60,708 nucleotides of DNA from Planctomycetaceae bacterium (lineage in GTDB: Bacteria > Planctomycetota > Planctomycetia > Planctomycetales > Planctomycetaceae), in contig JAKFUF010000094.1 in assembly GCA_021732845.1 (NCBI GenBank), positions 1-60,708 on the forward strand, written 5' to 3'. Shown in pieces: positions 1 through 23,441 of the stretch. Within the stretch, counting starts at the first letter, position 1. Every line of letters starts with the position of its first letter. The notes beneath the pieces were generated by a model. That model was not told the DNA's origin, made no database searches, and saw only the letters and a program-made list of their open reading frames with translations. The translations under genes were made by a program, and so were the position numbers.

Positions 1-497
1 ACATCTTCTGTAACACGCCAAGTTCCTAAGAGTTTATCTACTAAACACGGTAAGTGTGACAACGAATTGTCACCTCACGCGCATCTTTAGATGCCACTCT
101 TTTGCCGCTACCAGATTGCCAAAGAACAATGCCGCAAACGCTGCCATCAGAGCTTGTCGCTCTTCCAGCAACCTTCGCGGCAGCAGCCTTGTGTGGGCTG
201 AAGCGGCACCGAACCAATTGTTCGATGCGGCTTCAAACCACTGTTGGTGGCTGTCTGCGTCGCTCGCAGTCATGTGCGAGAGGACGATCATAGAAGGCCT
301 GAATCGGGGCGTCAATGCACTTTCGTTGCTTCTGATGATTTTTTCCAAAAGTCCCCACGACTGTCATCAGACGATGCCCCAAGCCATGCCAAAGAAAGAT
401 ACTCCGCCTGTCTCGCCCACAGATGATCTATTTTTTATCTCGTTGAACCAAGTGGCAACCGTGGGCACTGTCGCGCCCGCCCCTGGATCGAGCACGT
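1..497. other. No confident gene at the left edge
   Basis: Open frames exist on both strands here (for example 70-348 minus and 56-523 plus), but none has a recognisable domain, a convincing ribosome-binding site or family-like composition, and they overlap each other. The stretch lies downstream of the minus-strand gene ending at 498. It is left unassigned. Confidence 0.4.
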
Positions 498-1652
498 CTA
501 CTTGGTGGCCGCCGGGCGATTGAGGTGTGTCTCGATCTTCCGCAACGTCGGCGGGCTGTGACGGATGATCAAGATCCCGGGAATTTTATCGAAGACCGAA
601 CCGCTCCCACCGGTCTCCCGCCAATTGCCAGGATCGACGACCCGCACCAGTTCTTTGACGAGTTCTCCGTGGCTCTGGCTCGCGCCGGGTTTTGGCAATC
701 GGAAGACCCCTGCACGGAGCCTCGAGCTGGACGTCCGTTCGCTCGTCACGCGGAGCAGGTCATCGTCGATGTACCAGACCAGGCTGGCTTGATCGAGGAT
801 TTTCGAGATCGCCACATGCACCGGCAACCCCTTAAGTTCTCCGCTGATTGGCTGCTCCATGTCAAATCCGTCGTTGAGGATTGCCAACTTCTCGACCACC
901 AAATTGCTCTCGGCCAGCAGATCTTGCAGGACGGTCGACAGCGCTTTTCCAGAACATTCCTGAGCAACCACGGCCTCCAGCGCCGATTGCAGACGGGGCA
1001 CTGGCGATCGTAACGGCTTCGCGACACTCTTGGCTGACCGCAGATCCTCCAGCAGAGCATGGATTGCGTCGTGAATGTGAGCAGACTGCTCGACTTCCAG
1101 CGTTTGAAGCCCTGACCTCAGTCTGCCTGGCCCTCCCATGAAATCCCAAGCTTCGGGGTCAATCGTGGAGACGACTGCGCCGGCAATTTGCCGTGCGCTC
1201 AGGCCCGACATCGCAAGATCCGCCGTCGGATGCGAACGGCTCACAATCCGTTCAGCTTTTGTGCGACTGAGAATGTGAATCTGTTCTGTATCAGTTTCCC
1301 ATGCCCAGGCCGTGTCCGTCATCAGGGCATTCAGTGCTGATCGAAATTTGCAGTCTGTCAGCTTGAGCCGCACCGTGTGCGCCGTCGCAAGTGGATGCCG
1401 AAGCAAGTCCTCCTCATGGAATACAATGGTCACTTTCAACTGCGTTGCCAGCATTCCTATGCATTCTCGCACGGGCTTGCCGTGAAAACTCACAGTAATG
1501 CGTGAGTTCAAGAGCTTTTCGAGGCTCTGCGCATCACCCAGGAGTTTTGGGTCGGCGACTTTCGCGTCTTGAGCCACCGCCAGCAGACTCGAGTGGTCGC
1601 CGAGAACCTGAAACACAACCAGGAGTGACAGGAACATCCTGAGGATAGTCAT
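498..1652 (-). CDS. Secreted protein with two STN-like domains
   Basis: A 384-residue protein with an N-terminal hydrophobic segment (about residues 1-28) that looks like a signal peptide. The body is two similar halves. Each has an STN/secretin-N0-like stretch (about 45-135 and 230-310), in which LKLTDCKFRSALNALM and SGELKGLPVHVAISKI occupy equivalent places, followed by a block centred on IDPEAWDFMGG (about 180) or VDPGNWRETGG (about 345). The order STN then DPxxW block is shared by many planctomycete exported proteins of unknown function. The start is supported by GGAGG eight bases upstream of the ATG. It is transcribed away from the amidase gene. No enzymatic motif is visible; a periplasmic binding or scaffold role is inference. 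Confidence 0.8.
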   Translation of the reverse strand: MTILRMFLSLLVVFQVLGDHSSLLAVAQDAKVADPKLLGDAQSLEKLLNSRITVSFHGKPVRECIGMLATQLKVTIVFHEEDLLRHPLATAHTVRLKLTDCKFRSALNALMTDTAWAWETDTEQIHILSRTKAERIVSRSHPTADLAMSGLSARQIAGAVVSTIDPEAWDFMGGPGRLRSGLQTLEVEQSAHIHDAIHALLEDLRSAKSVAKPLRSPVPRLQSALEAVVAQECSGKALSTVLQDLLAESNLVVEKLAILNDGFDMEQPISGELKGLPVHVAISKILDQASLVWYIDDDLLRVTSERTSSSRLRAGVFRLPKPGASQSHGELVKELVRVVDPGNWRETGGSGSVFDKIPGILIIRHSPPTLRKIETHLNRPAATK

Positions 1653-2165
1653 CCGAAAAGCCTCCGAAATGATGATCGATCCAGCGGTTTACCATGCCAA
1701 CCCCCGACTTTATGTCCTGTCTCGCGCTTTTCCATGGTGTCAAGCAGTTGAGCCCAGAATCATCTGTCGGCGATTTTCACTGAGGAATGTCCCGGTGTGG
1801 CCATTCTGCAACGCCCAAAACCCGGCATTCTTCAGCTTTTTGCAGAATGCTCCACAGAACGTGGCGAAAATGCATCCAACGTGCGGATTACAAAACTGGG
1901 TGGATCTGCGCCGACCCTAGCACCGCCTCAAATTTCGCATAACCCCCAAAATTGCAACGACTGTGACGGCATAAACCGCCCAGAGGCCGTAATCCCGAGG
2001 GAATTTCTTGACGCGCAGCGTTCCATGGCCCCTGAGCCACGCACCGCGATTGACACGTTTTTCCATCACTTGTACATTCCACCGGCCACAGTTGTCGGCA
2101 AGCAGGGATGTTTGCGTAAAGGATTGGCGACTCGGGGATTTACGGGTTGCAGGGAAAGGGTGGAT
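1653..2165. other. Divergent intergenic region
   Basis: About 510 bases between the minus-strand STN-like gene and the plus-strand amidase. It should hold both promoters, but no box pair is clear enough to call. An open frame runs through from 1797 in the amidase frame, yet its translation up to about 2160 has no domain character, so it is treated as leader. Confidence 0.4.
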
Positions 2166-2948
2166 TTGAACGGGTGGCGACAACCGCTGTTTTGGTGGAC
2201 CGTTGCCGGCCTGTGGCTGGTGAGCATTCCGAACTGTTCGGGATGTGCGCGGACAGCACTGCCTCCGCCAACATCGATTCCGTCGCCGCGACCGTTGCCA
2301 CCGCCTCCTCCACCAGTCGTTGAGTACCAAAGGAAGCTACTGCCGCCGCCAGTTGACATCGGGAAGCCTGTTTCAGAACAGAAGAAGAAGCCCAACAGTT
2401 ACAAGCCACAAGCGACGGAACGGAAGTGGAAATACATCGTGATCCACCACACCGCCTCGGAAACGGGCAGCGTGGAAAGCATTCATGAAGAGCATATCAA
2501 ACGCAAAGACAAGAGCGGAAACCCTTGGATGGGAATTGGTTATCACTTTGTCATCGGGAATGGCAAGGGGATGAATGACGGAGCGGCAGAGCCTACTTTC
2601 CGGTGGAAGACACAGATTCAGGGAGCCCACGCCGGGAGCGCGGACCCCGAATACAACCAGTTGGGGATCGGCATCTGCCTGGTGGGGAATTTTGAAAAGA
2701 CGGCTCCCACGGCGGAACAGTTGCGGACGGTGAAGGAACTCGTGCAGACGTTGAAGGCGGAATACAAAATCTCGACCAAAAACGTGGTGGGGCACACCGA
2801 CGTGCGGACGGGCGGAACTGCCTGTCCCGGAAAACTGTTTCCCATGAACGATGTAGCGGTGATTGGCGGCGAGACGGAACTCGGCCTCGATCTGGAAATC
2901 ACGCCCGCGCCCTCGCTGGCAAATAATACGGGGAGTGTTTTGAAATGA
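2166..2948 (+). CDS. N-acetylmuramoyl-L-alanine amidase / PGRP-like
   Basis: Peptidoglycan amidase of the amidase_2/PGRP fold, predicted to cut the lactyl-amide bond between MurNAc and the stem peptide. The zinc-type ligands are visible: HH in YIVIHHTAS (about residue 103), a later H in [16 protein letters not shown] (about 225), and the downstream Cys of the same motif. The TTG start at 2166 is chosen because AGGGAAAGG lies just upstream and the product begins with a membrane-type segment ([15 protein letters not shown]) followed by a possible lipidated SGC and a proline-rich linker. The frame stays open to an ATG at 1797, giving 383 residues, but that extension looks non-coding. It overlaps the next gene by four bases (ATGA), implying translational coupling. 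Confidence 0.85.
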
Positions 2949-3736
2949 CGGCACGCTTTCGCATCGATCCCGCTCCCACGTCTGAACAGAACGGCCTCGC
3001 GAACCTCCTTCCCGCTCAGCCGGAGGGCAACCGCCGCCAGTGGATGGGCGAGGCGTCCGAACGTCCGTTGCGGCTCGTCGCCGAAGCCTTCGAACCGTTT
3101 GACAACGAAGCGATTTTCATCCCCGAAGGGTATGAAGAGAACTACGCCTATCCGTTGATCGTATGGGTCGCAGGACCGGATGCCGGCGAGATCGAACTGC
3201 ATCGGATCATGTCGCAGGTCAGCACGCGGAACTACATGGGCGTGCTGTTCCGTGGCACAGACGAAGAACTGGCCGCGATCCGGGTCCCCAAAGCTGACCA
3301 CGACGAACTGCTGCAGGCCTGCGAACAGCGTCTGTTTCAGACAGTGCGCCGCGTTCGTCGGATGTTCCATATCCATACCGAACGGGTGTTCGTTGCTGGT
3401 TTCGACCAGGCCGGTTCGCTGGCGTTGCAGCTCGGTCTGCAGCGGCCCGAATGGTTTGCCGGGATGGCCGCCTTCGCCGGCCGACTCCCCGAAACCCCCC
3501 AGCTTCTGGCCCGCTTCGACGAACTCCGCGGCAAGCGGGTGTTTCTCGGTGCCGGCCAGCGGGATCGCGACATGCCGGTCACCGAAGTCACCCGCGCCAG
3601 CCGGCTGCTGCAATCGGCCGGGCTCCGCGTCTGCACACGGACCTACGACGCGGACCATGAAATCACCCGCTCCATGCTGACCGAACTCGACCGCTGGGTC
3701 ATGCGCGAGATCTACCAGCCCGCCGTGGCGGGTTAG
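2945..3736 (+). CDS. Alpha/beta hydrolase-like, Asp at nucleophile
   Basis: A 263-residue alpha/beta-hydrolase of the carboxylesterase/phospholipase type. The nucleophile elbow reads GFDQAG (Asp154), where the family normally has GxSxG. The other expected residues follow in order: an acidic loop GQRDRDMP (about 204-211) and a histidine in DADHEI (His238). Asp can serve as nucleophile in this fold (haloalkane dehalogenases, epoxide hydrolases), or the protein may be non-catalytic; the sequence cannot decide. No signal peptide is seen. It is coupled by a four-base overlap to the amidase upstream and followed after a short gap by the CDF transporter, so the three probably form one transcript. 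Confidence 0.8.
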
Positions 3737-3768
3737 ACCGCTGGATGCCCAGGAGCAAACGAATCCCG

Positions 3769-4650
3769 ATGAGTACATCAAACGCACCGGGAATTCGTGC
3801 CGCTCTGCTGGGGATGGCGGTCAACGGCGCACTGGCAGCCGTGAAGCTGACGGCGGGGATCTTCGGAAACTCCTACGCGCTCATCGCCGATGCCGTTGAA
3901 TCCTCACTCGACATCTTCTCGTCGATCATTCTCTGGCGCGGGCTCCGGATCACCGCTCAGCCCCCGGACCATCACTTTCCATACGGGTACGGCAAGGCCG
4001 AGGCACTCACAACCGCCGTCATCGCCCTGATGCTGGTCGGTGCCGCGATCGGGATCGCCGTGGCTGCGGTGCAGGAAATCCGCGCTCCGCAGCATGCTCC
4101 CGCGGCATTCACCCTCGTTGTTCTGGTGGGCGTGGTTTTCGCCAAGGAACTGTTGTTCCGCAACGTGCTGTCGGTCGGAACGGAAACCGGCAGCGGAGCG
4201 GTCAAAGCCGATGCCTGGCATCACCGCAGCGACGCCATCACTTCGGCCGCCGCCTTTGTCGGCATCGCTGTCGCCCTGTGGGGCGGGGCAGGGTGGGAGT
4301 CCGCCGATGACTGGGCGGCACTGGTGGCGGCGGGCATCATCGCCTTCAATGGATATCATCTGCTGCAGCCTGCGATCAACGACCTCATGGAGCGCCGCCC
4401 CGATGACGGTGTCATCTCGCGCATCGAGAGCGTGGCTCAATCCGTCCCCGGCGTCATGGCGATTGAAAAGCTGCGGGTCCGCACGTTCGGCACTGGTTTC
4501 TTCGTCGACCTGCACGTCGAGGCCGACCCGGAAATGACCCTGCGTGATGCCCACGATTTGAGCCACCGAGTGAAGTCCGCGATCCGCGACGCCATGCCGG
4601 CAGTGTTCGATGCGTCGGTGCACATGGAGCCGTTTGACGGGGCTCCCTAA
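3769..4650 (+). CDS. Cation diffusion facilitator transporter
   Basis: A 293-residue inner-membrane divalent-metal/proton antiporter of the CDF family. About six hydrophobic segments fill residues 10-205, and the last 80 residues form the cytosolic ferredoxin-like domain (VPGVMAIEKLRVRTFG through DASVHME). The second metal site is canonical HxxxD (HHRSDA). The first reads ADAVESSLD, with Glu where zinc CDFs usually have His, so metal preference may differ. The ATG at 3769 is preferred because AGGAG lies upstream, though the spacing is long; an in-frame ATG at 3745 would add eight residues. Probably co-transcribed with the hydrolase. Confidence 0.9.
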   Translation: MSTSNAPGIRAALLGMAVNGALAAVKLTAGIFGNSYALIADAVESSLDIFSSIILWRGLRITAQPPDHHFPYGYGKAEALTTAVIALMLVGAAIGIAVAAVQEIRAPQHAPAAFTLVVLVGVVFAKELLFRNVLSVGTETGSGAVKADAWHHRSDAITSAAAFVGIAVALWGGAGWESADDWAALVAAGIIAFNGYHLLQPAINDLMERRPDDGVISRIESVAQSVPGVMAIEKLRVRTFGTGFFVDLHVEADPEMTLRDAHDLSHRVKSAIRDAMPAVFDASVHMEPFDGAP

Positions 4651-4667
4651 TCAATGAACTTGCAGGA

Positions 4668-4728
4668 TGCCGGGACACCTGTCACGGACCCCGCTCGACA
4701 GGTCTCGCACTCGATCCGCTGGCGGCCC
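4668..4728 (-). repeat. Partial copy of two-stem repeat element
   Basis: The run starting GCCGGGACACCTGTC and continuing through CGGACCCCGCTCG to GATCCGCTGGCGG matches the reverse complement of the element at 7521-7613. The outer stem is cut short on one side, but the inner stem pair (CGGACC with GATCCG) is kept. It sits in the gap between the CDF gene and the converging helix-turn-helix gene, which otherwise holds nothing recognisable. Confidence 0.6.
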
Positions 4729-4840
4729 CGCCGCATTGTCATGGCTCTCAGCAAATTGGCCGAACAGGTTCTGCGTTGACTCGCTGAACAATCCGATCTG
4801 CCTCCAAGTTGCCTGCTGGCATCCCGACCGCTGGCAGCGC

Positions 4841-6148
4841 TCACATGACAGGCGGCGCGGGCGGCAGGCGGGCTCTTGCCTGCTCCAAGAGCCGCCGTAA
4901 CGCCTCGACATCCGCTTTGTCGACAGCCCCATTGTGTCCATTTTCGACGGCAGACCGCGCGGCCGCAGCTTGGATCTTCATCGTCATCCCCTTGATCTGC
5001 CGGAACAGTTCATCGGTGGCGTCGTCGTCGTCGAAATCGTCATATGCGACAGGCGGCGCTGCCTGCTTCTCGCTGCCAATGCTGCCGTCTGGACGGCGTA
5101 AATGCGTCGTTTTCTCATCAAAAGAACGCGAACGGCTGGCGACAAGCGCGTCAGATTGTTCCCGCGCTGCGGGTCGCAAAGTTGCCGAGTCACTCCGTGA
5201 CTCGAACCCGTGGCTCACTCTCAGAGCTGGAGTCGAGCTTGGGAGCGTCAACGGGTTCACGACAGGCGGCGCTGCCTCGGTCATCACCCGGAAGGCGTTG
5301 GCGTCCGGGTCTGGGGCCGAGTTCGAGTCACGGAGTGACTCGGCAACGATCGGCGGCACCGGCCGCAACTTGATCCTGCCCGTCAATATCCCATGCTGCT
5401 GCTGGACATGCCCGGACGCCACCTCGTAATCATGGGCATCTTCGGCATCGATCTCCTTTTGCAGTTCTTGTTGCTCCTCATCCAACTCCTCTTCGAGTTC
5501 ATCCGCAAAGTCCTCTTCTTCAGCGTCATCCTTCCTCCCGCGAACCTGGTTGATGCCACACGGCCCGTTCGGGTCCAGGTGGCTCAGACAATACTTGATC
5601 GCCCACGGCTCGCCGTTTTCAACCCCCAGCACGAGCCGCAGGGTCCAAGCGTCGGCCACGTCAGGTTGAGGCACGAGTTCCGTGGCTTTCTTTTTCGCGG
5701 CCGCAGCCGCAGATGAAGCCGCAGATGAAGCCGCCGACCCGGATGCGCTCGGCCAGGCAGGCGACATCGGGACCCCATGCATGCGGCTCACTCCAAAAAT
5801 GATCGCCCAACGGGCCTTCGCCTTCACCGCTTCGTCGAACTGCTCCCAGGCGTAGTGAACCATGACGGCCCGCGCCGCATCGAAGCACGCCTTGAGCTGC
5901 GGTGCCCGCTCAATCCGGCGGTACAACGTCGACCGGACGATTCCCAGCGCGAGAGCCACGGATTTGATGATTCCCATGTGCGTGACGATCGCGACATAGA
6001 TCTCAAGGTCACTCACCTTGCAGTCGCTGCGTGCCTTCCGCCCGCGACCCTCAGCCACCCGCTGATCGAGGGAAACACCGTCCGTCACCACACCTTCCGC
6101 CGCCGAACCCTGATTGCAACCGTCCACGACCCGTCTCCGCTTCCGCAC
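4841..6148 (-). CDS. HTH protein with embedded DNA repeats
   Basis: A 435-residue protein starting with GTG. Residues about 45-90 form a helix-turn-helix reminiscent of Fis-type or phage small-terminase DNA-binding domains (GIIKSVALALGIVRSTLYRRI). A low-complexity Ser/Ala run lies near residue 140 and a strongly acidic, coiled-coil-like segment near 205-235 (DDAEEEDFADELEEELDEE). Residues about 268-325 contain two opposite-orientation copies of a dispersed hairpin, read as AESLRDSNS and FESRSDSATL, that also occurs three times in the adjacent non-coding DNA. The C-terminus is charged and helical. Function is unknown; DNA binding is inferred from the HTH alone. It may be a phage-derived gene or one being eroded by repeats. 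Confidence 0.65.
   Translation of the reverse strand: MRKRRRVVDGCNQGSAAEGVVTDGVSLDQRVAEGRGRKARSDCKVSDLEIYVAIVTHMGIIKSVALALGIVRSTLYRRIERAPQLKACFDAARAVMVHYAWEQFDEAVKAKARWAIIFGVSRMHGVPMSPAWPSASGSAASSAASSAAAAAKKKATELVPQPDVADAWTLRLVLGVENGEPWAIKYCLSHLDPNGPCGINQVRGRKDDAEEEDFADELEEELDEEQQELQKEIDAEDAHDYEVASGHVQQQHGILTGRIKLRPVPPIVAESLRDSNSAPDPDANAFRVMTEAAPPVVNPLTLPSSTPALRVSHGFESRSDSATLRPAAREQSDALVASRSRSFDEKTTHLRRPDGSIGSEKQAAPPVAYDDFDDDDATDELFRQIKGMTMKIQAAAARSAVENGHNGAVDKADVEALRRLLEQARARLPPAPPVM
5186..5204. repeat. GGA/TCC triloop hairpin, copy 1
   Basis: CGAGTCAC, loop TCC, GTGACTCG: a perfect 8-bp stem with a three-base loop closed by C-G. It lies inside the HTH coding sequence. The conserved block extends outward to GTTGC on one side and GAA on the other (5181-5206). 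Confidence 0.9.
5324..5342. repeat. GGA/TCC triloop hairpin, copy 2
   Basis: Same 19-base hairpin as at 5186 but in the opposite orientation (loop GGA on the plus strand), also inside the HTH coding sequence. Together the two copies make an inverted pair separated by about 120 bases. Confidence 0.9.
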
Positions 6149-6280
6149 TGTGATAATAAACCGATGTCCACATCACACTATGGCCGCGGCGCGCGGGAGT
6201 CAATGTGTAAAATACATTTTTGTTACCGCATTGTCAAAACAGTGCTTTCCGACGTGGCGGGAAGAGGCTCCATTCTTAGC

Positions 6281-6304
6281 GGCACGGCGCAAGCCGTCCG
6301 GTGA
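6281..6304 (+). repeat. GCAA tetraloop repeat, copy 1
   Basis: GGCACGGCGCAAGCCGTCCG followed by GTGA. The core ACGGC, loop GCAA, GCCGT forms a 5-bp stem with a GNRA-type loop. The same unit recurs at 6591-6614, 6910-6933, 7220-7243, 7265-7288 (inverted), 21486-21509 and 56689-56712, with stem-compensated variants at 7151-7176 and 56650-56675. Confidence 0.85.
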
Positions 6305-6325
6305 TGGATGTATCGCTCCGCATCC

Positions 6326-6346
6326 CCACTGAGCTCGCCTCAGTGG
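6326..6346. repeat. CCACTGAG hairpin
   Basis: CCACTGAG, loop CTCGC, CTCAGTGG: a perfect 8-bp stem. A related hairpin follows at 6362-6382 (ACCGAG, loop ATGAA, CTCGGT) and another at 7656-7676 with a full CCACCGAG/CTCGGTGG stem. The 7477-7497 region carries a near copy (CACTGAG/CTCAGTG). Confidence 0.8.
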
Positions 6347-6449
6347 AATCGGGCCTGTGCACTACCGAGATGAACTCGGTGGGGTCATGGACTGGCGCGT
6401 GATGGTTCGCCCCGCGATGCCGGTTGGCGAGATCGACGGCGGAGTGTCG

Positions 6450-6468
6450 CCTCTCGCTCCGCGAGAGG
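6450..6468. repeat. TCC triloop hairpin, CCTCTCGC stem
   Basis: CCTCTCGC, loop TCC, GCGAGAGG: a perfect 8-bp stem with the same loop and closing C-G as the CGAGTCAC family but a different stem. A second copy is at 6769-6787, in the second tandem unit. Confidence 0.9.
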
Positions 6469-6643
6469 CCGCGAGCGTGGTCCGACGCGGACCGTCACGG
6501 TGGCTCGGGATTCGTTTTTGTCGGGAGTGTCGCCAGACATTCGCGTTCTTTTGCGAGAGACAACGACGACTTTACGCCCCTCATTTTAGCGACACGGCGC
6601 AAGCCGTCCGGTGAGTGCTTTCGCCATGCAGAAAGCCAGACTT

Positions 6644-6662
6644 CGAGTCACGGAGTGACTCG
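6644..6662. repeat. GGA triloop hairpin, copy 3
   Basis: CGAGTCAC, loop GGA, GTGACTCG inside the first 319-bp unit; the flanks CTT and GCAACTTT are shared with copies 4 and 5. Confidence 0.9.
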
Positions 6663-6715
6663 GCAACTTTCGATGACAGACGGAAGCCGCGTCCACCGCT
6701 CACCGTGGCTCAGCA

Positions 6716-7034
6716 GCGTGATGGTTCGCCCCGCGATGCCGGTTGGCGAGATCGACGGCGGAGTGTCGCCTCTCGCTCCGCGAGAGGCCGCGAGCGTGGT
6801 CCGACGCGGACCGTCACGGTGGCTCGGGATTCGTTTTTGTCGGGAGTGTCGCCAGACATTCGCGTTCTTTCGCGAGAGACAACGACGACTTTACGCCCCT
6901 CATTTTAGCGACACGGCGCAAGCCGTCCGGTGAGTGCTTTCGCCATGCAGAAAGCCAGACTTCGAGTCACGGAGTGACTCGGCAACTTTTGATGACAGAC
7001 GGAATCCGCGTCCACCGCTCACCGTGGCTCAGCA
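6716..7034 (+). repeat. 319-bp tandem duplication, second unit
   Basis: Second copy, directly abutting the first (6397-6715). It carries the same hairpins in the same order: 6769-6787, 6798-6812, 6910-6933 and 6963-6981. The near identity implies a recent duplication or ongoing gene conversion. Confidence 0.9.
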
Positions 7035-7109
7035 GGAGCTGGAGCCCTCCCGCCGCGCCGTCCCCCGGTCCAGCGGCATCCCATCTCAAGCGTCGATATC
7101 ACCCCGCAT
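6942..7109 (+). repeat. 168-bp direct repeat, first copy
   Basis: Begins GCCATGCAGAAAGCCAGAC, passes through a GGA triloop hairpin and ends at CAAGCGTCGATATC. It recurs at 7307-7474 with few differences. Its first half overlaps the 319-bp unit, so the hub shows nested duplications with different end points. Confidence 0.85.
6963..6981. repeat. GGA triloop hairpin, copy 4
   Basis: CGAGTCAC, loop GGA, GTGACTCG, within the second 319-bp unit and the first 168-bp repeat. Confidence 0.9.
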
Positions 7110-7306
7110 CCCCGCTGAGCTTGCATCAGATTTTCCCACTGCGTGGAGACTCACCGGAGGGCTCGCGCCCAACCGCTACTTGACGGAGAAAAAGACGACT
7201 TTACGCCCTTCATGGAAGCGGCACGGCGCAAGCCGTCCGGTGAGTGCTTTCGCCCTTCGTGGGGTCACCGGACGGCTTGCGCCGTGCCGCTTACATTGGG
7301 GTTGAA

Positions 7307-7474
7307 GCCATGCAGAAAGCCAGACTTCGAGTCACGGAGTGACTCGGCAACTTTCGATGACAGACGGAAGCCGCGTCCACCGCTCACCGTGGCTCAGCAG
7401 GAGCTGGAGCCCTCCCGCCGCGCCGTCCCCCGGTCCAGCGGCATCCCATCTCAAGCGTCGATATCTCTCCGCAT
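7307..7474 (+). repeat. 168-bp direct repeat, second copy
   Basis: Second copy of 6942-7109, preceded by an inverted pair of GCAA-tetraloop elements (7220-7243 and 7265-7288) facing each other across about 20 bases. Confidence 0.85.
7328..7346. repeat. GGA triloop hairpin, copy 5
   Basis: CGAGTCAC, loop GGA, GTGACTCG, with the same flanks as copies 3 and 4. Confidence 0.9.
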
Positions 7475-7520
7475 CCCCACTGAGCTTTGCCTCAGTGTAT
7501 TTGGGCCTCTGCACTAATAG

Positions 7521-7613
7521 CCTTGCGTGATTCTAGGACACCGCCAGCGGATCTGGAGTGAGCGCCAGCGAGCGGGTCCGCGACAGGTGTCCCGGAATCG
7601 CGCAATTTGATAC
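7521..7613 (+). repeat. Two-stem structured repeat element
   Basis: Outer arms TTGCGTGATTCTAGGACACC and GGTGTCCCGGAATCGCGCAA pair at 17 of 20 positions. Inside, GCGGATC pairs with GGTCCGC. A second full copy is at 23359-23441, where the outer arms differ at compensating sites and the inner stem is a different sequence (GTGGAGCCA with TGGCTTCAC); a partial inverted copy is at 4668-4728. Conserved pairing with changed sequence suggests that structure is what is retained. Confidence 0.8.
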
Positions 7614-8177
7614 CGGTCGAACGGCGGCACGCGGCGTAGTGCACAGGCCCGTTCACCACCGAGATGAACTCGGTGGGGATGCGGAAGGTCGCGGTGGTTG
7701 TGGAAACCGTGATCGAGGAATTGGCCTGGACGCAATCGTCATCTACCGAGTCGCCGGGGCTCGGCCAGCCTCGAGTACCATGCCATCCAGGTGCGATTTC
7801 CTACCAATTCCTTTTTTTCGATGGCGTGCGGTCCCGGTGGCTCATTATAAAGTACTCGGGCCGAATTCCGGATTCAATTTCAACAACTGACCGAGGATCT
7901 CTCGTGCAGCGTATCGCCGCTTCGTCCCCCTTCATCCACCGCAAAGACGCAGACTCCCGCGTGACATTGAATCCAAAGTCCGCCACTGGCCTTCGCCCAC
8001 GTGGCTGTGACCCATCACTGCGAGCTGCGTCATCCGTCTTCCCCTCGTCAGACGTGGCGTAACTCCGGACTCTTTCCGGCCAGTTGACCGCTGCACGGTC
8101 GTTCTCGGATTGGCAGTTCCGCGGCGACGTCCAGCCTGACTCACTCTGATTTGCAACAAGCCTTTTCAGGATCTCCC

Positions 8178-11100
8178 ATGCTCACGAAGTTCTCCTGGTT
8201 GAATTGGGTCCGGACCTTCAGCACGCAGCCGGCCCGGGGCCGACGGGCGAAGGCGAAAACTCACCAGGCCGTGATGGTGGAACCGCTTGAGCCACGGGCG
8301 ATGCTTGCCGCCACGGCCTTCGACACCGGCACGCTGACGATCGACTTCAGCGCGGCGGATGAAACTGTCACGCTCAGCAACAACGGCACGAACATTACGG
8401 TGGCCAGCACCGACACTGTCACAGGTGCGGGAAACACGTTCACTACAGGGACCGTCACCCGGGTTGTGGTCACGGATTCAGGCAACTTCGGCAATCAGGC
8501 GTTCGCGATTTCGGGCTCGGCGAATTATTCGCTCTCCGGCGGACTGGACGTGACGGGAGCGGAGCGGTTTCAACTCAGCAGGGCGGTCGCGACAGCGACG
8601 GCGGGTGCCTCGGTTGTTGTCAGCGAGCAGATGGACCTGTTTGCCGCGCTCACGGCGACCGACGGGAACATCTTTCTCTCGGCCAACCAGCAGACCCAAG
8701 CCACCTCGGGATCGTTTTTCGGGATTGATGTGTTCGGCGGGTCCGTGACGACATCGGGGACAGGGACGGTCACGCTGCTTGGGCGCGGCGGCGACACTGG
8801 CATCACCCAGATTGGTGTTCGCGTGGACGGTGGTGGATTCGTCTCGGGTGCCAGCACGATGGTCACGGGGACCGGCGGTGCATCCAGCGGCGTCGCCAAC
8901 TGGGGTGTTTACGTCAGCGGCTTCCCCAACAACAGCACCATCACATCCACGGGTGGCAACGTCACGGTCAACGGGACCGGTGGCGGTGTGTCTGGTTCCT
9001 CGCAGAACATCGGGGTGCGGGTGGTTAATGGAGGAACAGTGACTGCCGACGGCACCGGTGCCGTGAACATCGTCGGGACCGGGGGGGTGGGTTCGAGCAG
9101 TCACGGTGTCGAGGTGGCAGCGTCGCCAACGGCGGACATCGGCCAGATCACCACGAATGCGGGCGCGCTCTCCATCAACGCCACGGCTGCCAATTCCAGC
9201 AGCATGGCTGTCCGTGTGGGGGCCAACGGACGCTTGGCGACAGGAAGTGGCGCAAACCTGACGGTGACGGCGGACACCGTCTTCATCGACTCGACATCCG
9301 GTGCCGTGGATGCCGGCGCAGGCACGGCCACTTTCCTGACTCGCACTGCCGGACGCGCGATCGGATTGGGTTCCGGATCCGTGGCGGGTGTCGCGCTGGG
9401 ATTCGCGTCGGATGAGTTGAACCGCGTCACCGCCGGCACGCTGGTCATTGGTGATGCGACGGCGGGCAATATCACGATCAGTACCGCAATTGCCCCCACG
9501 GGAACAAGCCAGCTTGAACTTGTGACTGGCGGGTCGATTCTCGACAGCAATGCCACCGGCGACGACCTCACCGTGGCTCGGCTGGGCATGACCGCCTCCA
9601 CCGGTATCGGCGCGACGAACACCCTGGAAACAGCGGTGGGCAACCTGGAAGCCACGACGGCCACGGGGGGCATCTTCGTCAGCAACACAGGCGACCTGGT
9701 GGTGGGCGGCGTGAACAGCACGCTGTCGGGCCTCACCGTGACCGGCGCGTCCGGGGCGATTCAGTTGACCAACGCTGGCAGTGTGCTGGTTTCGCAGCAG
9801 GTCCAGTCCGCAGCCGCGGATGTGTCAATCAATGCCACGGGTTCCACGTCCAACCTCATGGTCCAGGCCGGCTCGGTTTCAGCCACGACGGGTGTGCGGG
9901 CAGCCACCACGCTGACCCTGCAGGCGGGGCAGGATGTCCTCCTCGGAGCGGCTGGCAGCAGGGGCAGTCTGCAGGCGTCGGGAATTTCGATCACGTCGGG
10001 CCGGGACTTTGTGGCGGATGCCAACACCTTCGTGATTGCCACCGGGACCGGCGGCATTCAGGTGACGACCGGCGGTGACTTCAAGATGCTGCAGGCGGTT
10101 GCCGCCGGTTCGCTGTTCAATTCAAACAGCAGCGGCGCGATCACGATCAATGTCGCGGCCGGCCATGCGTTCACCCTGGATGTGGGCAGCGTGGCTCTCA
10201 ACAGCCGCATCGCCGCCAACAGCGGACCGGTCATCATCACCGCCGACGACGTATCGATCGTCTCGGGACAGGTTCTGAGCAACAGCACCATCACGGTGAA
10301 ACAGGCCACGGCTGCGCGCGGGATCGACCTCGGCACAAATGCGGCCGGAGTGCTCGGCCTGACCGACTCCGAACTGGACAAAATCATCGGCTCTGGATTG
10401 TTCATTGGCGACAGCAGCAGCGGCACCATCACGGTCAGTCAGCCGATTACCTATGTCCGCAATCTGACGCTGACCACCGGCGCGGATGTGGCGGTCAACA
10501 ACTCCCTGACATTGGATGTTGACAAGAGTTTGACGATCAACGCGGTCGACACCATCAACCTCAGCGGCAGCAGTGCCGACCTCGTCCTGTCGGGGACAGG
10601 GGTGGCGGCTCTCACGACACTGCGCAACATTCAAATCATTGACGGCAGCGTCACCTCCGTAGATGGCAACATTCTGCTGAAAGCCAACGAACAGGGAACG
10701 TCGGCCGGCATGTTTATCGGGATTGATGTTTCCGGGGGATCGGTGACGACCACCGGGACCGGAACGGTGACATTGCTCGGGAGGGGCGGGAATGGCAGCA
10801 ACAGCAATGCGGGAATTCGCGTGGTACTGGGGGCCGCGATCACCGGCAAGAGCACATCGGTGACAGGCTATGGCGGGGCATCCGCTGGCCCGGCGAACTA
10901 TGGAGTCTACGTCACCGGGGCGAACAGCAAGATCTCCTCGAGCGGCGGAAATGTCCAGGTGATTGGCCAGGGCGCAACGACCGGAGACAGTCAGAATTAC
11001 GGCGTTTACGTGGTGTTCAGCGGGGCCATCAAGGCCAGTGGTTCGGGCACGGTCTCGGTGACCGGCACAGGAGGCGGCGGAAACTCCAGCGATGGAGTGT

Positions 11101-14100
11101 TCGTTGGCAGCGCCGAGACGACCGACTCGCTGATTTCTTCTTCCGGCGGGACCGTTTCAATCGATGGCAGCGCCAGCGGCGACAGCAACGGGGTGCGGGT
11201 TGCATCCCGTGGAATAATTGCGACCGGTGTAAACGCCAATCTTAGCATCGCCACCGACTCCATTGTCATTGGGGGTGCGATCAATGCCGGCCTTGGTGAC
11301 ACCACCCTGACGCCCAAGACCGCCGGACGGGTGATCTCGCTGGGCGCCGCGAGCGTGAATGGGTCAAGCTTGGGGCTGCAGAGCGTTGAACTCAACCGGA
11401 TCACCACCAGCCGACTGATTATCGGAAATGCGTCGGCAGGAGATATCACCTCCAGGAGCGCCATTAACCCGAACAGCGTGCAACAACTTGAACTGGTGAC
11501 CGGCGGCCAGATCATTGATGGAAACACCACAGGAACCGACATCTCCGTGGCGAAGCTGGGGCTGACGGCGGGCACCGGAATTGGTGTCGGCAATGCGCTC
11601 GACACCGGTGTGAGCTTTCTCGAAGCCACAACGGTCTCCGGCGGAATTGCCATCGCCAACTCGGGCGGCGGCCTGACCATTGGTGCCGTCAACAGCACCC
11701 TGGCCGGGCTACGGGTCACCGGCAGCTCTGGCGGGATCGATTTGCAGAATACCGGCGGTGACGTGCGGGTCACCCTCGGCGGCGATCTGGTGAGAGCCCC
11801 CGGCAACGTCAGCATCCGGACACTGACCAGTGGCAACATTGTCACGGCAAACAACAATGGCTTCACGTTTGCCTCCTTTGCGGGCTCAATCAACTCCTCG
11901 GGGGGAGACGTGACCCTCAACGCCGTGGGCAACATCGACTTGGGGGAGACTGCGAACGGCAATACCAACGGTGATGTCATGAGCGCCGGCAACCTCTCGA
12001 TCACGGCGGGTGGCAGTATTACCGCCGATGACCAGGCATCGATTCAGGCGACAGGCTCGGGGGTGACCATCACTCTCAACGCCGGGACCGACATCTCCGT
12101 GCTGCACACGCACGCCGGAGGTTCGATCATCGCCAACCAGAATCTGAGTGGTGGGCTGATTTCCGCTCGAACTGGGGCGGGTGGAACCTTCACCTTGGAT
12201 GGCGGGAGCTCCAATCCCGGTATCTTCAGTGGAGCAGCAGGGTTGCGAATTGCCGCCGACAACATGTCGATCCTCGACGACATTGTCTTCTTTAATGGCG
12301 GCAACGTCACCTTCACGACCACCACCGCCGGGCGGCAGATCGACCTGGGGACGAATACCAGTGGCGCCTTGGGCTTGACCAGCAGCGAAATCAATTTCGT
12401 CACCACCGCCGGTTCGCTGACCATCGGCGATAGCAGCAGTGGCTCAATCACCTTCAGCGATTCGCTGACTCCCATCATCACCACGGTGAACCTCGTGACC
12501 GGGGGCAGCATCGTTAGCACGACTTCAAGTGGAACGGATCTGACGGCATCCGCCATGAGCATTACCGCTGCCACCGGGATAGGTTCCAGCACCAACCCAC
12601 TCAAGTTCAATGTCGATAACATCGGCACCGACACCCGCGACAGCAACGGCGACCAGTTTCTGAGCGAAAGCAACCTGGCGCTGCTGACCTCGTCGACCCA
12701 GTCGCTGCAGGCCGGCACGGGCACCATCACCCTGGCTGGCGGCGACTTCCGCCTGGCCGGTGGCGGCATTTCAGCGGCAAATCTCACCGGCAGCAGCTCG
12801 GCGACGCTTTCGGGAACCGGCAGTGTCAACGCAAATGTCGCGGGAGCGCTCACCGTGGCTCCTGGTGCCAGTCCGGGGATACTGACAATCAATGGAGATT
12901 TCACTCCGACCGGGACCGTCGCTTTTGAAGTCAATCCTCCCGCAGCCACGGCCGGTACCGACTACGACCAGATTGTGGTGAATGGTGCCGTGGATCTGAG
13001 CGGGGCGACCCTGACATTGACCGGAACAACCGGCACGGTGGCGGTCAACCAGTTGGTTTCGCTGATTCTGAATGATGGGACCGATCCCATTACTCCGGCC
13101 ACCAATTTTGTCGATGGTCAGGTCGTCACCATCAATGGCAACACGTACCGCCTGTTTTACAACGGCAGCGACGGGAACGATCTGGTGCTGATCGAGAACA
13201 GCGCGCCAGCGGTCGTGTATGTGGACGACAGCTTCACGGCCAGCGCCGGCGTGACGATCACGGATGCGGACCAGGGGACCACCGGCGACCAATCGGCGGT
13301 GTTTGGGATCTCGGCGTTCAATACCATTGCCGCAGCCCTGGCGGCGGTCTCCAGCAGTGGAACAGTGATCGTCAACGCCGGTTCGTACACCGAAACCGTC
13401 AGCGTGAACGGCACAAAGACTCTGCAGGTCGGCGGGGCGGATGCGGCCCAGGCGGTCTCCATTTCTGACCTGGCCTCAATCAGCGGGACGACGTTGATGC
13501 TGGCGGGCAGCTCATCGCTGGCCTTTGGGAATGCGACAGATCGCACCCTGGCGGGTCTGATCAGTGGCAGCGGCAGCCTGACGAAGCAGGGTGCCAGCGT
13601 CGTCACCGTGTCGGGCAACAATACCTACAGCGGCTTGACGACGATCAGTGCCGGGACCCTGCGGGTCACCGCCAACAACGCCTTGGGAACGACCGCCGCC
13701 GGGACGTCCGTGGCTTCCGTGGGTATCCTCGAATTGCGCAATGTGAGCTACAGCACCGCCGAAGCTGTGACCATCGCAGGTGGAACCATTCTCGCCACGA
13801 GCGGGACCTCCACGTTCGCGGGCACCATCACCATGACGGCCAGCAGCAACTTCAGAGGCAACAGTTCGGTCCTGGTACTGACCGGCGCAGTCTTGGGAAG
13901 CTTTCAGGTCATTAAGAACGATTCCGGCACACTGCGGCTCAGCAATACCGGCAACACATTCGCCAACGTGAACATCGGCGGCGGCACGCTGCAGTTGGGT
14001 GCCGCGGGGGTGATTCCCGACACGGCCGACATCGTCAACAGCAGTACGTTTGATGTCAACGGGTTTGATGAAACGCTGGATTCGTTGGGTGGCAATGGGA

Positions 14101-17100
14101 CCATTGGGAATTCCCAAGCGACGCTTGTCACCTTGACCATTGGTGCCGGCAACAACAACTCTTCCAGCATTCAGAACGGCGCCATCTCCGGAGCCATCAA
14201 CCTCCGAAAAATCGGCACGGGCCGGCAGGTGCTGGGCGCCGGCGGCAGCACGTTCACGGGGACGGTGACCATCGACAGCGGTACGCTGGCCGTTTCGAGA
14301 GAAGGCGGCGGCGGAGCCGTGCAAGGCTTGGGAGCAGCCAGCGGCGGCACGACCGTGAATGCCGGGGGAATCCTGGAATTCCAGAGTGTGCTCTACGCTT
14401 TGGCGGAACCGATCACGGTGAACGGCGGGACCATTCGGGCCACGTTCAGCACCAGCAGCTTTGGCGGTACGATCACACTGGCAACCGCCACCGCCACGTT
14501 CAATCTGACGACCGGGGCCACGTTGACCCTGAATGGCGCCATCAGCGGTGACCAGGCTCTGACCAAGACCGGCGTTGGCACGTTGATCCTCGGTACAACA
14601 AACACCTACACGGGGGCCACGACTGTCAACGGCGGCACGCTCCTCGTCAACGGCTCACTTGACGCCGGCAGCAGCGTGGCCGTCAATAACAGCGGCACAC
14701 TCGGGGGCAGCGGCACCGTCAATGGCAGCGTCAATGTCGCCAGCGGCGGCAAGGTCAGCCCCGGCAATTCGCCCGGTGTGTTGAACACCGGCAGCGTCAC
14801 CTTCGCCGCCGGCTCCAGTTTCATCGCCGAGATCAACGGAACCTCGGCCGGCACCTTCGACCAGCTCAACGTCACGGGGGCCGTCAGCCTGGGCAATGCG
14901 ACGTTGACCCTGAGCGGCACCATCACCAGCAACATCGGTCAGCAGATCGTGCTGATCAACAACGACGATGACGGGGACATGGTGACCGGCACCTTCAACA
15001 ATCTGCCGGAAGGTTCGATCGTGGCCGTCAACGGGCTGGCGTTCCAACTCAGTTACGCGGCCGGCACCGGTGGCAACGATGTCGTACTGACAGAAATCGC
15101 CAATTACAACGTGTTTCTGGACAATGATGGCAACTTGGTCTTTACCGACCTGTTGGGCAACATTGCCGATGATTTTTCGATCTCGTTCAATGGCACCAGC
15201 TACATCCTGACGGACACGACCCAGAAGCTGTTCACGCTGATTGCCAATGCCACGGGCAGTGGCACGAACACGGTGATCGTCCCGGCAGCGTCCATCACTG
15301 GCACCGGGATCATCCTCAACGGCCAGGGTGGCGCGGACACGCTGACGGTGACCTACGGGGCCAGCAATTTCGCGCACACGGTGACGGTCAACGGCGGCAC
15401 AGGCAGTGACAACCTGCGGACGACCGGCACGGCGTCCGCCGCCTTGTCGCTGAACATCAATGGCGACGCGAACGACGACACGGTGAACCTCAACGCCGAT
15501 ATCACGTTCGCGGCCGACAGCTTCCTCAACGTCGACCTGGAGGACGACGGTGCCACGCCGGGCAGCGACACCATCAGCGTCGGCACCAATGCCAACATGA
15601 TTCTCAGCGGCACGGGCGGGGCCACACTCAAGGCCAGCAACACCATCGATTTTGCCACCGGCTCCAGCATCGTCACCGCCGGCGGCAATACGGTTGTGGA
15701 GACGACCACCTTTAGCCTCGCCGGCAGCCTGACGGCCAGCGCCGCGCCGGTCAGCGTCACGGCCGACAGCATCACCATCACCACGAACGGCCTCATTGAT
15801 GGCCAGGCCAACACGGTCACCGTCCGGCCAATGTCGGCGGGCACCGCGATCGACCTGGGGGCCGATGACACAGCCGGCACGCTGGGACTGACCGCCGCCG
15901 AACTGAATCGCATCACTGCCGGCACCCTGGTGATCGGCACCGCCTCCAGTGGCTCAATCACGCTCTCGGCGGACATCACCCGTGCGGCCAGCACCAACGT
16001 GCAACTGACCAGCGGCGGAAACATCGTCCAAACGAGCGGCGCAGGTTCGTTCAACACGGCCGGTGGGACGCTGCTGCTGACCCCCGGCGGCAATGCCAGC
16101 CACCTGCCAAACCGCGCGGGAACCGACCTGACGGCCACCACCGTCAGCTACGCCGCCGGCAGCCAGGTCACAATCGACATTGGCGGGACCACGGTCGACA
16201 GCGAATATACGCAACTGAATGTCTCAGGCACGGCCAACCTGACCGGGGTCGCACTCAACCTGACCGGCAGCTTTGCGTCAGCCTTTGGCAATACGTTCAC
16301 GATCGTGGCCGCCACCTCGGTCACCGGTCAGTTCTCCAACTTCGAAGACGGCAGCACCTTCGACTTCAACGGCCGCACCCTGCGGATCGACTATGCGAAC
16401 GCGACCGTCACCCTGACCGATGTCACGGCCCAGGCACCCACGCTGACCATGGCCGGCAACATCACTTACATCGAGAACGATCCCGCCACCGCCATCGCCG
16501 CCGGCATCGTGGTGAATGACCTCGACAACGCCACCTTGTCCAGTGCCACCCTCAGCCTCACCACCTTCGTCAGCGGCGAAGATGTGCTGGCGTTCGTGAA
16601 TGACGGCAGCACGATGGGTAACATCAGCGTGGCCTCCAATGCGGGCGGTGTGCTGACGCTGACCTCCGTCGACGCCACGGCCACGCTGGCCGAGTGGCAG
16701 GCCGCCCTGCGGGCCGTGACCTACTTCAACACCAGCGAGAACCCGACGACAACCACCCGTCTAGTGACGTTTTCCGTCAACGATGGGGACTTGGACAGCA
16801 ACGCGCTGACCAGCATGGTCAACATCACCGCCGTCAACGATGCACCCATGCTGACCACGGCGGGCAACATCACCTACACCGAAAACGACGCGGCCACTGC
16901 CATCGCCACCGGAATTGTCGTGAACGACTTCGACAGCACCACTCTGGCCAGCGCCAATATCCGCATCAACAACTTCCTGGCCGGTGAGGATGTGCTCGGC
17001 TTCGTCGCCAACAGCGGCACGATGGGCAACATCCAGCTTGTCTCCAACGACACCCGCACCATCGTCCTGACCTCGGCCGGCGCGACGGCCACTCTGGCCG

Positions 17101-23358: not shown

Positions 23359-23441
23359 CCTTGCGTGATTCCGGGACACCGCCAGTGGAGCCAGAGCGAA
23401 TGGCTTCACGATAGGTGTTCCGGAATCTCGCAATTTGATAC
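23359..23441 (+). repeat. Two-stem structured element, second copy
   Basis: Outer arms TTGCGTGATTCCGGGACACC and GGTGTTCCGGAATCTCGCAA pair at 18 of 20 positions; inner stem GTGGAGCCA pairs with TGGCTTCAC at 8 of 9. Compare 7521-7613. Confidence 0.8.

What the first reader, a model, noticed from the sequence alone, without database searches (positions are those of the whole stretch)
6397..7034. Tandem 319-bp unit that is an array of minihairpins
Two abutting copies differ at about three positions by eye. Each carries four perfect short hairpins (loops TCC, ACG, GCAA, GGA) in fixed order. A 168-bp direct repeat (6942-7109 and 7307-7474) overlaps the second unit with different ends, so duplication has happened more than once.
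Basis: seen in the sequence. Interest (0 to 1): 0.6.

Follow-up and report, generated by a model that had tools for sequence, protein, structure and literature searches.

The report
Tandem hairpin-repeat cluster targeted by introns
The tandem hairpin unit is a local duplication inside a cluster of short mobile hairpin repeats lying upstream of one member of a large private gene family, and elsewhere in this genome two of these hairpin types serve as landing sites for a spreading self-splicing intron.

Summary
Two abutting 319-bp units (6397-6715, 6716-7034) differ at 3 positions, each with the four hairpins; the 168-bp repeat extends to 181 bp at 97%. It is not an isolated oddity. Two hairpins are genome-wide families: R1 (295 exact copies) and R2 (209). 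R1 is a GTAG-tagged REP in other genomes (26 of 27 copies). Y1/RAYT-type transposase genes are flanked by R1 or by R2. The window's own R1 copies carry GTTG, so they look like decayed relatives, amplified by local duplication. The duplication joint lies in the loop of a further hairpin, B. Hairpin B and a relative, A, are where a group II intron lands: 28 of 29 distinct 5' exons end in A or B plus CTC. About 32 intron copies, judged by identical ends, break this assembly. The window holds two empty landing sites (7049/7050, 7414/7415). The cluster lies upstream of a gene (4841-6148, -) with 58 matches here and three marginal ones in 169 relatives; palindromes are about 100-fold enriched upstream of its 30 best-scoring copies. 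Tandem REP clusters are a known kind; an intron colonising a private hairpin family beside a private gene family is a new variant. Copy number needs long reads.

The parts
6397..6715 (+). tandem unit 1 (319 bp)
6716..7034 (+). tandem unit 2 (319 bp, 3 mismatches to unit 1)
6942..7122 (+).
   Evidence: family D1
7307..7487 (+). 181-bp direct repeat, copy 2, 97%
   Evidence: family D1
6449..6469 (+). hairpin P1, TCC loop, 9-bp stem (repeated at 6768-6788)
6479..6493 (+). hairpin, ACG loop, 6-bp stem (repeated at 6798-6812)
6594..6607 (+). hairpin R2 core, GCAA loop, 5-bp stem (repeated at 6913-6926); other R2 copies start at 6281(+), 7220(+) and 7265(-)
6644..6662 (+). hairpin R1, GGA loop, 8-bp stem (repeated at 6963-6981 and 7328-7346); on the other strand its tag reads GTTG
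7212..7296 (.). inverted pair of R2 elements, 32-nt arms, 97% complementary
   Evidence: pair I5
7026..7054 (+). empty group II intron landing site, type B hairpin; junction between 7049 and 7050
   Evidence: exon junctions
7391..7419 (+). second empty landing site, type B; junction between 7414 and 7415
6704..6724 (+). tandem joint: the unit 1/unit 2 boundary falls in the loop of hairpin B, so unit 1 keeps only its left arm
   Evidence: read (compare 7023-7045)
6326..6346 (+). further hairpin (8-bp stem); related ones at 7478-7497 and 7656-7676
4841..6148 (-). gene upstream of which the cluster lies; 435 aa, probable N-terminal helix-turn-helix, 58 matches in the genome
5181..5210 (-). R1 copy inside that gene, in frame
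5318..5347 (+). inverted partner R1 copy inside the gene, in frame
4654..4725 (-). palindromic module R5, degenerate
7519..7612 (+). palindromic module R5

Best explanation
The 319-bp tandem is a local duplication within a noncoding cluster of short mobile palindromes upstream of a divergent gene. Shown: the palindromes R1 and R2 are multi-copy families; Y1/RAYT-type transposase genes in this genome are flanked by R1 or by R2, and for R2 also in two other genomes; R1 in other genomes has the GTAG tag of REP elements; hairpins A and B are the insertion sites of a multi-copy group II intron, and the window holds two empty ones. Inferred: RAYT-type transposases seeded the palindromes; hairpin-prone replication then multiplied segments in tandem (the duplication joint lies in the loop of hairpin B); the intron reverse-splices next to hairpins A/B and thereby spreads through these clusters, which serve as harmless havens. 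The cluster is most likely selfish or neutral DNA, with no demonstrated host function.
For: R1 core 295 exact copies and R2 core 209 in this genome, 0 for the reversed patterns there. R1 tag GTAG in 26 of 27 distinct copies from other genomes. Y1 gene on L050 abuts an R1 array of alternating orientation, with degenerate R1 on its other side; NCBIfam REP_Tyr_transpos is its best hit (64 bits, cut-off 80) and it is over the Pfam Y1_Tnp cut-off (28.5 against 23). Y1 gene on L052 flanked by R2 on both sides; homologues on L363 and L366 in two other genomes, E 7e-85 and 5e-97, also flanked by R2. Seven-motif density: 13 hits in 400 kb of unselected DNA, 0.0325/kb, against 3.42/kb upstream of 29 of the 30 best-scoring gene copies, window copy left out (126 hits in 36.8 kb; 22 of 29 with at least 1 hit, 17 of 29 with at least 2). 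In the window 14 hits in 4650-7700 and 5 in the rest (six motifs, looser limits). Intron: 33 exact 5' ends at contig ends, 32 exact 3' ends, Rfam RF00029 54 bits over gathering score 40 in 4 of 4 3'-end loci scanned. 5' exons: 17 A, 11 B, 1 other of 29 distinct. R1/R2 within 500 nt of 16 of 29 5' junctions and 18 of 29 3' junctions, against 3 of 780 background windows. Empty sites: 48 in this genome, 0 in 169 relatives, reversed-pattern control 0.
Against: All four window R1 copies carry GTTG, not GTAG; of 121 distinct copies in fetched DNA of this genome 60 are GTTG, 44 GTAG, 11 GTCG. R2 has GTAG at the matching place in only 34 of 95 distinct copies here, 5 of 18 elsewhere and 0 of 5 in the window. 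R1 copies in the tandem all face the same way, unlike classical BIMEs. All three Y1 proteins tested score below the NCBIfam cut-off (64, 57 and 21.6 bits against 80), and the one by R2 only just reaches the Pfam cut-off (23 bits). No homologue of the R1-flanked Y1 protein was found in the regions taken from other genomes. No transposase lies in the window cluster. Hairpins P1, A and B have no transposase assigned. The intron interior and its protein were not found in the assembly. Two of the five Y1 loci (L048, L051) show none of the scanned palindromes.
Confidence: 0.75

Rival explanations
1. The array is a cis-regulatory region of the divergent gene: the helix-turn-helix protein, or its paralogues, binds the repeated hairpins or the dyad upstream of its start and controls its own expression.
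For: The family has 58 matches. Palindrome density upstream of its 30 best-scoring copies is about 100 times background and more than twice that downstream (3.63 against 1.54 per kb). The subfamily-2 copies aligned share a conserved 5' stretch with an 8-bp dyad close to the start, often directly beside an R1. HTH_8 and P22_Cro profile hits in 7 and 17 of 31 members at E up to 0.1.
Against: Five fetched copies of another subfamily have 0-1 hits upstream (L314-L318), and 7 of 29 of the best-scoring copies have none. Of 30 related clusters, 5 have no such gene within 3 kb and no contig end, and 13 cannot be judged. Orientation and composition of the arrays differ between copies. The window gene lacks that dyad (read).
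Confidence: 0.13
2. Gene plus array is itself a mobile element of an undescribed kind, moved by the helix-turn-helix protein, with the array as its ends or origin and the intron as a passenger.
For: The family is private: 58 matches here, only three marginal ones (E 1e-4 to 9e-4, 32% identity) in 169 relatives. Copies are dispersed, with a sharp 5' block boundary in the copies aligned. Palindromic R5 modules flank the window copy and its 98% paralogue on C31.
Against: R5 also occurs alone, so it is not shown to be a terminal repeat. Target-site duplications were not systematically tested. Downstream boundaries differ between copies. No nuclease or transposase family was recognised.
Confidence: 0.1
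3. The two-copy tandem is an assembly artefact, or its copy number is wrong.
For: This assembly breaks at repeats: 33 contig ends stop in the same intron 5' end. An identical stretch of 155 bp between the units is longer than the apparent overlap.
Against: Three differences separate the units. Other clusters show tandem repetition with periods of 423, 431, 436 and 547 bp.
Confidence: 0.05

Closest known systems
GTAG-tagged REP elements with RAYT transposases (PMC3733652, passages read; PMC2817692, abstract start in search listing)
   Same: Short palindromes in high copy, GTAG tag on R1 in other genomes, Y1/RAYT-type gene flanked by the palindrome, tandem reiteration of REPs with flanking DNA, copies within coding genes; the paper reports REPs in Planctomycetes.
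   Different: Window R1 copies carry GTTG; several palindrome families are combined in one long unit of 319 bp here, 423 to 547 bp elsewhere; the cluster also holds intron landing hairpins.
BIMEs and REPINs (PMC2817692 and PMC3116915, abstract starts in search listing)
   Same: Mosaic of REPs; inverted pairs exist (window 7212-7296, the pair in the gene, the array on L050).
   Different: R1 copies in the tandem all face the same way, and the unit is much longer than a REP pair.
Group IIC introns that insert after terminator or attC stem-loops (PMC7923331, passages read)
   Same: Insertion immediately after a stem-loop: 28 of 29 distinct exons are hairpin A or B plus CTC, and the 91% copy on C1 follows a different hairpin with the same 3-nt spacing.
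   Different: Domain V reads AGC, not the CGC given for IIC; six exon bases (GCCCTC) are constant in 28 of 29, where 3-4 pairing bases are given for IIC; the target is a private repeat family.
REP elements as targets of insertion sequences (PMC1525189, passages read)
   Same: REP-like repeats used as preferred targets; its table lists a Pseudomonas putida group II intron with 2 of 9 copies at REPs.
   Different: Here 28 of 29 exons examined are one of two related hairpins, and the intron has about 32 copies.

Membership tests
GTAG-class REP | short palindrome in high copy | tested here: met
   R1 295 exact copies; R2 209. The share lying outside genes was not counted.
GTAG-class REP | GTAG tag beside the stem, R1 family at large | tested here: met
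   26 of 27 distinct copies in other genomes; 44 of 121 in this genome
GTAG-class REP | GTAG tag on the window's own R1 copies | tested here: not met
   GTTG in 4 of 4; so they are called relatives of the REP family, not intact GTAG REPs
GTAG-class REP | GTAG tag on R2 | tested here: inconclusive
   GTAG is the commonest 4-mer at one fixed place before the stem in this genome, but in only 34 of 95 distinct copies (TTAG 27); elsewhere 5 of 18, level with TTAG; in the window 0 of 5
GTAG-class REP | cognate RAYT gene flanked by the same palindrome | tested here: met
   R1 with L050; R2 with L052, L363, L366. Proteins tested lie below the NCBIfam cut-off.
BIME | regularly spaced REPs in alternating orientation | tested here: not met
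   R1 copies at 6645, 6964 and 7329 all face +; only the R2 pair 7212-7296 is inverted
Group II intron (the element landing on hairpins A/B) | domain V/VI covariance match | tested here: met
   RF00029 54 bits, gathering 40, full model, ending at the exon joint, in 4 of 4 3'-end loci scanned
Group II intron (the element landing on hairpins A/B) | 5' end with domain I | tested here: inconclusive
   GTGCG start; RF02003 23.6 bits, below gathering 49, cut by the contig end
Group II intron (the element landing on hairpins A/B) | intron-encoded reverse transcriptase | not testable with these tools
   no contig continues into the intron interior among the 33 exact 5' ends; five RVT_1 hits exist but were not tied to it
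Group IIC intron | stem-loop directly upstream of the insertion point | tested here: met
   28 of 29 distinct 5' exons
Group IIC intron | CGC triad in domain V | tested here: not met
   domain V reads AGC (alignment); criterion from PMC7923331
Integron attC array or CRISPR | attC sites with cassette ORFs, or short regular repeats with unique spacers | not tested
   no specific attC or CRISPR search was run; the two units are 99% alike and abut, so there are no unique spacers between them

The most novel reading that the evidence does not exclude
A three-part selfish partnership: a private, dispersed gene family carries amplifying hairpin arrays beside it, the arrays act as renewable landing pads, and a group II intron with an AGC-type domain V, not the IIC kind, recognises those hairpins by structure and has colonised about 30 of them. 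Hairpin targeting would then not be confined to group IIC introns.
Probability: 0.2. Interest if true: 0.7.

Novelty: new variant of a known kind. Interest (0 to 1): 0.5.

Why it matters
It turns a curious tandem into a readable record of three kinds of mobile DNA stacked in one place: palindromes linked to transposases, local tandem growth, and an intron using palindromes as targets. The genome offers 48 empty and about 32 filled sites of one target family, so which feature of a hairpin a group II intron reads can be tested directly. It also explains many of the breaks in this assembly.

Tried and rejected
Terminal inverted repeats: R5 flanks the gene in the window and on C31 but occurs alone elsewhere, so a transposon with R5 ends was not claimed. 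Coding repeat: units of 319 and 547 bp are not multiples of three, though one array period, 423, is. Known RNA or tRNA: Rfam at gathering thresholds and ARAGORN found none in the window. Plasmid origin: no match in the plasmid collection. Structure of the gene product: single-sequence model with mean pLDDT 45, not used. Profile searches of the gene product gave only weak helix-turn-helix hits. Organism: the one genome-contig scan, with the neighbouring transporter, listed no record of this genome; its leading hits include Gemmata, Tautonia and a Pirellulales MAG at 63-68% identity. Unit 1 in 30 relatives: 4 of 30 in the tally, with only short pieces of the unit in the rows seen. One search used the wrong coordinates (exon flank of the C1 intron copy) and was wasted. 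First density count (2.96/kb upstream, 1.50 downstream, 0.32 inside) used 44 ORF rows in which some genes enter twice (L267, L269, L270, L272 with L304) and some loci had been fetched for their repeats; it was redone on the 30 best loci, one gene each. Neither count covers all 58 matches. Literature: searches listed no paper that describes a group II intron colonising a REP-like family in Planctomycetes; they cover only the held open-access library, and only part of the hits was listed for 31, 32, 35 and 84.

Full report
Observation. The tandem is real. Tandem Repeats Finder gives 6397-7035, period 319, 2.0 copies, 99% match. The units differ at 6552, 6671 and 6686 against their partners. Single hairpins are only moderately unusual by shuffling (2 per unit with stem of 7 or more against a mean of 0.19, maximum 3 in 500). 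What lifts them above chance is that they recur across the genome.

What the hairpins are. A search of the own genome (G000, 9.25 Mb, 262 contigs) with unit 1 gave 195 matches; some thirty of those listed are 78-85% identical over about unit positions 48-219, many of them near contig ends. Tandem arrays with periods of 423, 431, 436 and 547 bp occur there. The GGA-loop hairpin (R1) has 295 exact copies of its 17-nt core in G000 and occurs in 12 of 397 genomes of the class, G000 included, with 170 copies in one genome of another genus. The GCAA-loop hairpin (R2) has 209 exact copies of its 18-nt core and occurs in 27 of 397 genomes, G000 included. In other genomes R1 is preceded by GTAG in 26 of 27 distinct copies, the tag that defines the GTAG class of REP elements (PMC3733652, passages read). 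R2 has GTAG at one fixed place in 34 of 95 distinct copies of G000 and 5 of 18 elsewhere, so its tag is an open question.

Their transposases. G000 has five Y1_Tnp matches at or over the Pfam cut-off. One, on L050, abuts an array of R1 in alternating orientation with a period of about 135 bp, with degenerate R1 on its other side. One, on L052, has R2 arrays on both sides. Of twenty regions taken from other genomes because of R1 or R2 copies, two taken for R2, L363 and L366, each hold a close homologue of the L052 protein (E 7e-85 and 5e-97) flanked by R2; a third homologue lies on L351, taken for R1 (E 1e-42). No homologue of the L050 or L049 protein turned up in those regions, so the link between R1 and its transposase rests on G000 alone. 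L049 has R1 and R2 within 400 nt of its Y1 gene. L048 and L051 have none of the scanned palindromes. The three proteins tested match REP-associated tyrosine transposase best, but below the curated cut-off: 64, 57 and 21.6 bits against 80, the last barely ahead of an IS200 model.

Why the window copies look like relics. All four R1 copies in the window carry GTTG. In fetched DNA of G000, 60 of 121 distinct copies are GTTG, 44 GTAG and 11 GTCG. The R1 copies in the tandem face one way, so it is not a classical BIME. The simplest reading is that REP insertion came first and local duplication later. The joint between unit 1 and unit 2 lies in the loop of hairpin B: unit 1 ends GTGGCTCAGCA and runs into GCGTGATGG, while unit 2 ends with the same letters and continues GGAGCTGGAGCC (read). 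Duplication by template switching at a hairpin is inferred, not shown.

The intron. Many array-bearing contigs stop at one identical sequence. 33 contig ends stop within the first 84-126 nt of a GTGCG... sequence, and a 34th, internal copy on C1 is 91% identical. 32 places carry the same 3' end exactly, close to contig ends where I knew the contig length. Rfam scores that 3' end as group II intron domain V/VI, RF00029, 54 bits against a gathering score of 40, ending at the exon joint, in 4 of 4 such loci scanned. The 5' end reaches only 23.6 of 49 bits with RF02003, cut by the contig end. Only the ends are seen; that the copies are alike inside is assumed. Of the 29 distinct 5' exons that I could read, 17 end in hairpin A plus CTC, 11 in hairpin B plus CTC and 1 in neither (rows; like exons collapse, so 29 is fewer than 33). 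In one search, 30 distinct 3' exons were printed, mostly starting CCGCC, requiring 60 nt and collapsing by 75 nt, kept 29, of which 14 start CCGCCA and 8 CCGCCG. R1 or R2 lies within 500 nt of 16 of 29 5' joints and 18 of 29 3' joints, against 3 of 780 background windows. The C1 copy follows another hairpin, GGTCCGCGAAGCGGACC, with the same 3-nt spacing, which hints that structure counts more than sequence. Domain V has AGC, not the CGC given for IIC introns in PMC7923331 (passages), so I do not file it as IIC although it behaves like one.

The window's share. The empty-site pattern GGCTCN{8,12}GAGCCCTCCCGCC occurs 48 times in G000 and in none of 169 relatives; the reversed-pattern control is 0. 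Two of the 48 are in the window, 7026-7054 and 7391-7419.

The neighbouring gene. The cluster lies upstream of the gene 4841-6148 (-). Its first 252 residues have 58 matches in G000 and, in 169 other genomes of the family, only three marginal ones (E 1e-4 to 9e-4, 32% identity). Profiles hint at an N-terminal helix-turn-helix. Around the 30 best-scoring copies, one gene per locus with up to 1.5 kb on each side, the density of seven palindrome motifs is 3.63/kb upstream and 1.54/kb downstream; without the window copy it is 3.42/kb upstream, with at least one hit in 22 of 29 and none in 7. In 400 kb of unselected DNA it is 0.0325/kb (13 hits), and a Markov control of 240 kb gave 0. Lower-scoring copies look different: five fetched ones (L314-L318) have 0-1 hits upstream, and by my count 18 of the 58 matches were not looked at. 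Of 30 related clusters outside the window, 12 have such a gene within 3 kb, 13 have none but are cut by a contig end, and 5 have none. The link is therefore strong but not complete. R1 copies also sit in frame inside the window gene, as reported for REPs in other bacteria (PMC3733652, passages).

Verdict. A tandemly duplicated stretch of a REP-derived hairpin cluster: a known kind of thing, with two unusual additions, namely a private multi-copy gene family next to many of the clusters and a group II intron that has colonised their hairpins. Function for the host is not shown. Tandem reiteration of REPs with flanking DNA is described in PMC3733652, and a group II intron at REPs in 2 of 9 cases in the table of PMC1525189. 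I saw no report of the combination in the search listings.

Noticed in passing
8151-19610 (+): Giant ORF of 3819 aa with passenger-associated repeats (Pfam PATR) and an N-terminal LEPR-like motif that I recall from planctomycete surface proteins; it carries an internal 408-bp tandem repeat at 16455-17846.
   Followed up: no
L089 (C185) 347-5448; L090 (C136): A reverse transcriptase gene lies just after a protein whose C-terminus looks like a diversity-generating retroelement target; the start of C136 looks similar. The DGR label is recalled, not tested.
   Followed up: partly
G000 contigs C257, C166, C144, C118, C83, C62: Six places match domain V of the intron at 94% over 31 nt only, possibly a second multi-copy group II intron; C118 lies at a contig start, the others were not checked.
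   Followed up: no
L030 (C34) 2967-3829: Another tandem of 139-bp units, 6.2 copies, carrying empty type A landing sites.
   Followed up: no
5181-5210 and 5318-5347: An inverted pair of R1 elements kept in frame inside the gene 4841-6148; the paralogue on L268 carries the same R1-derived peptides.
   Followed up: partly
   Followed up: partly
23363-23432: A further palindromic R5 pair in the window, far from the finding.
   Followed up: no
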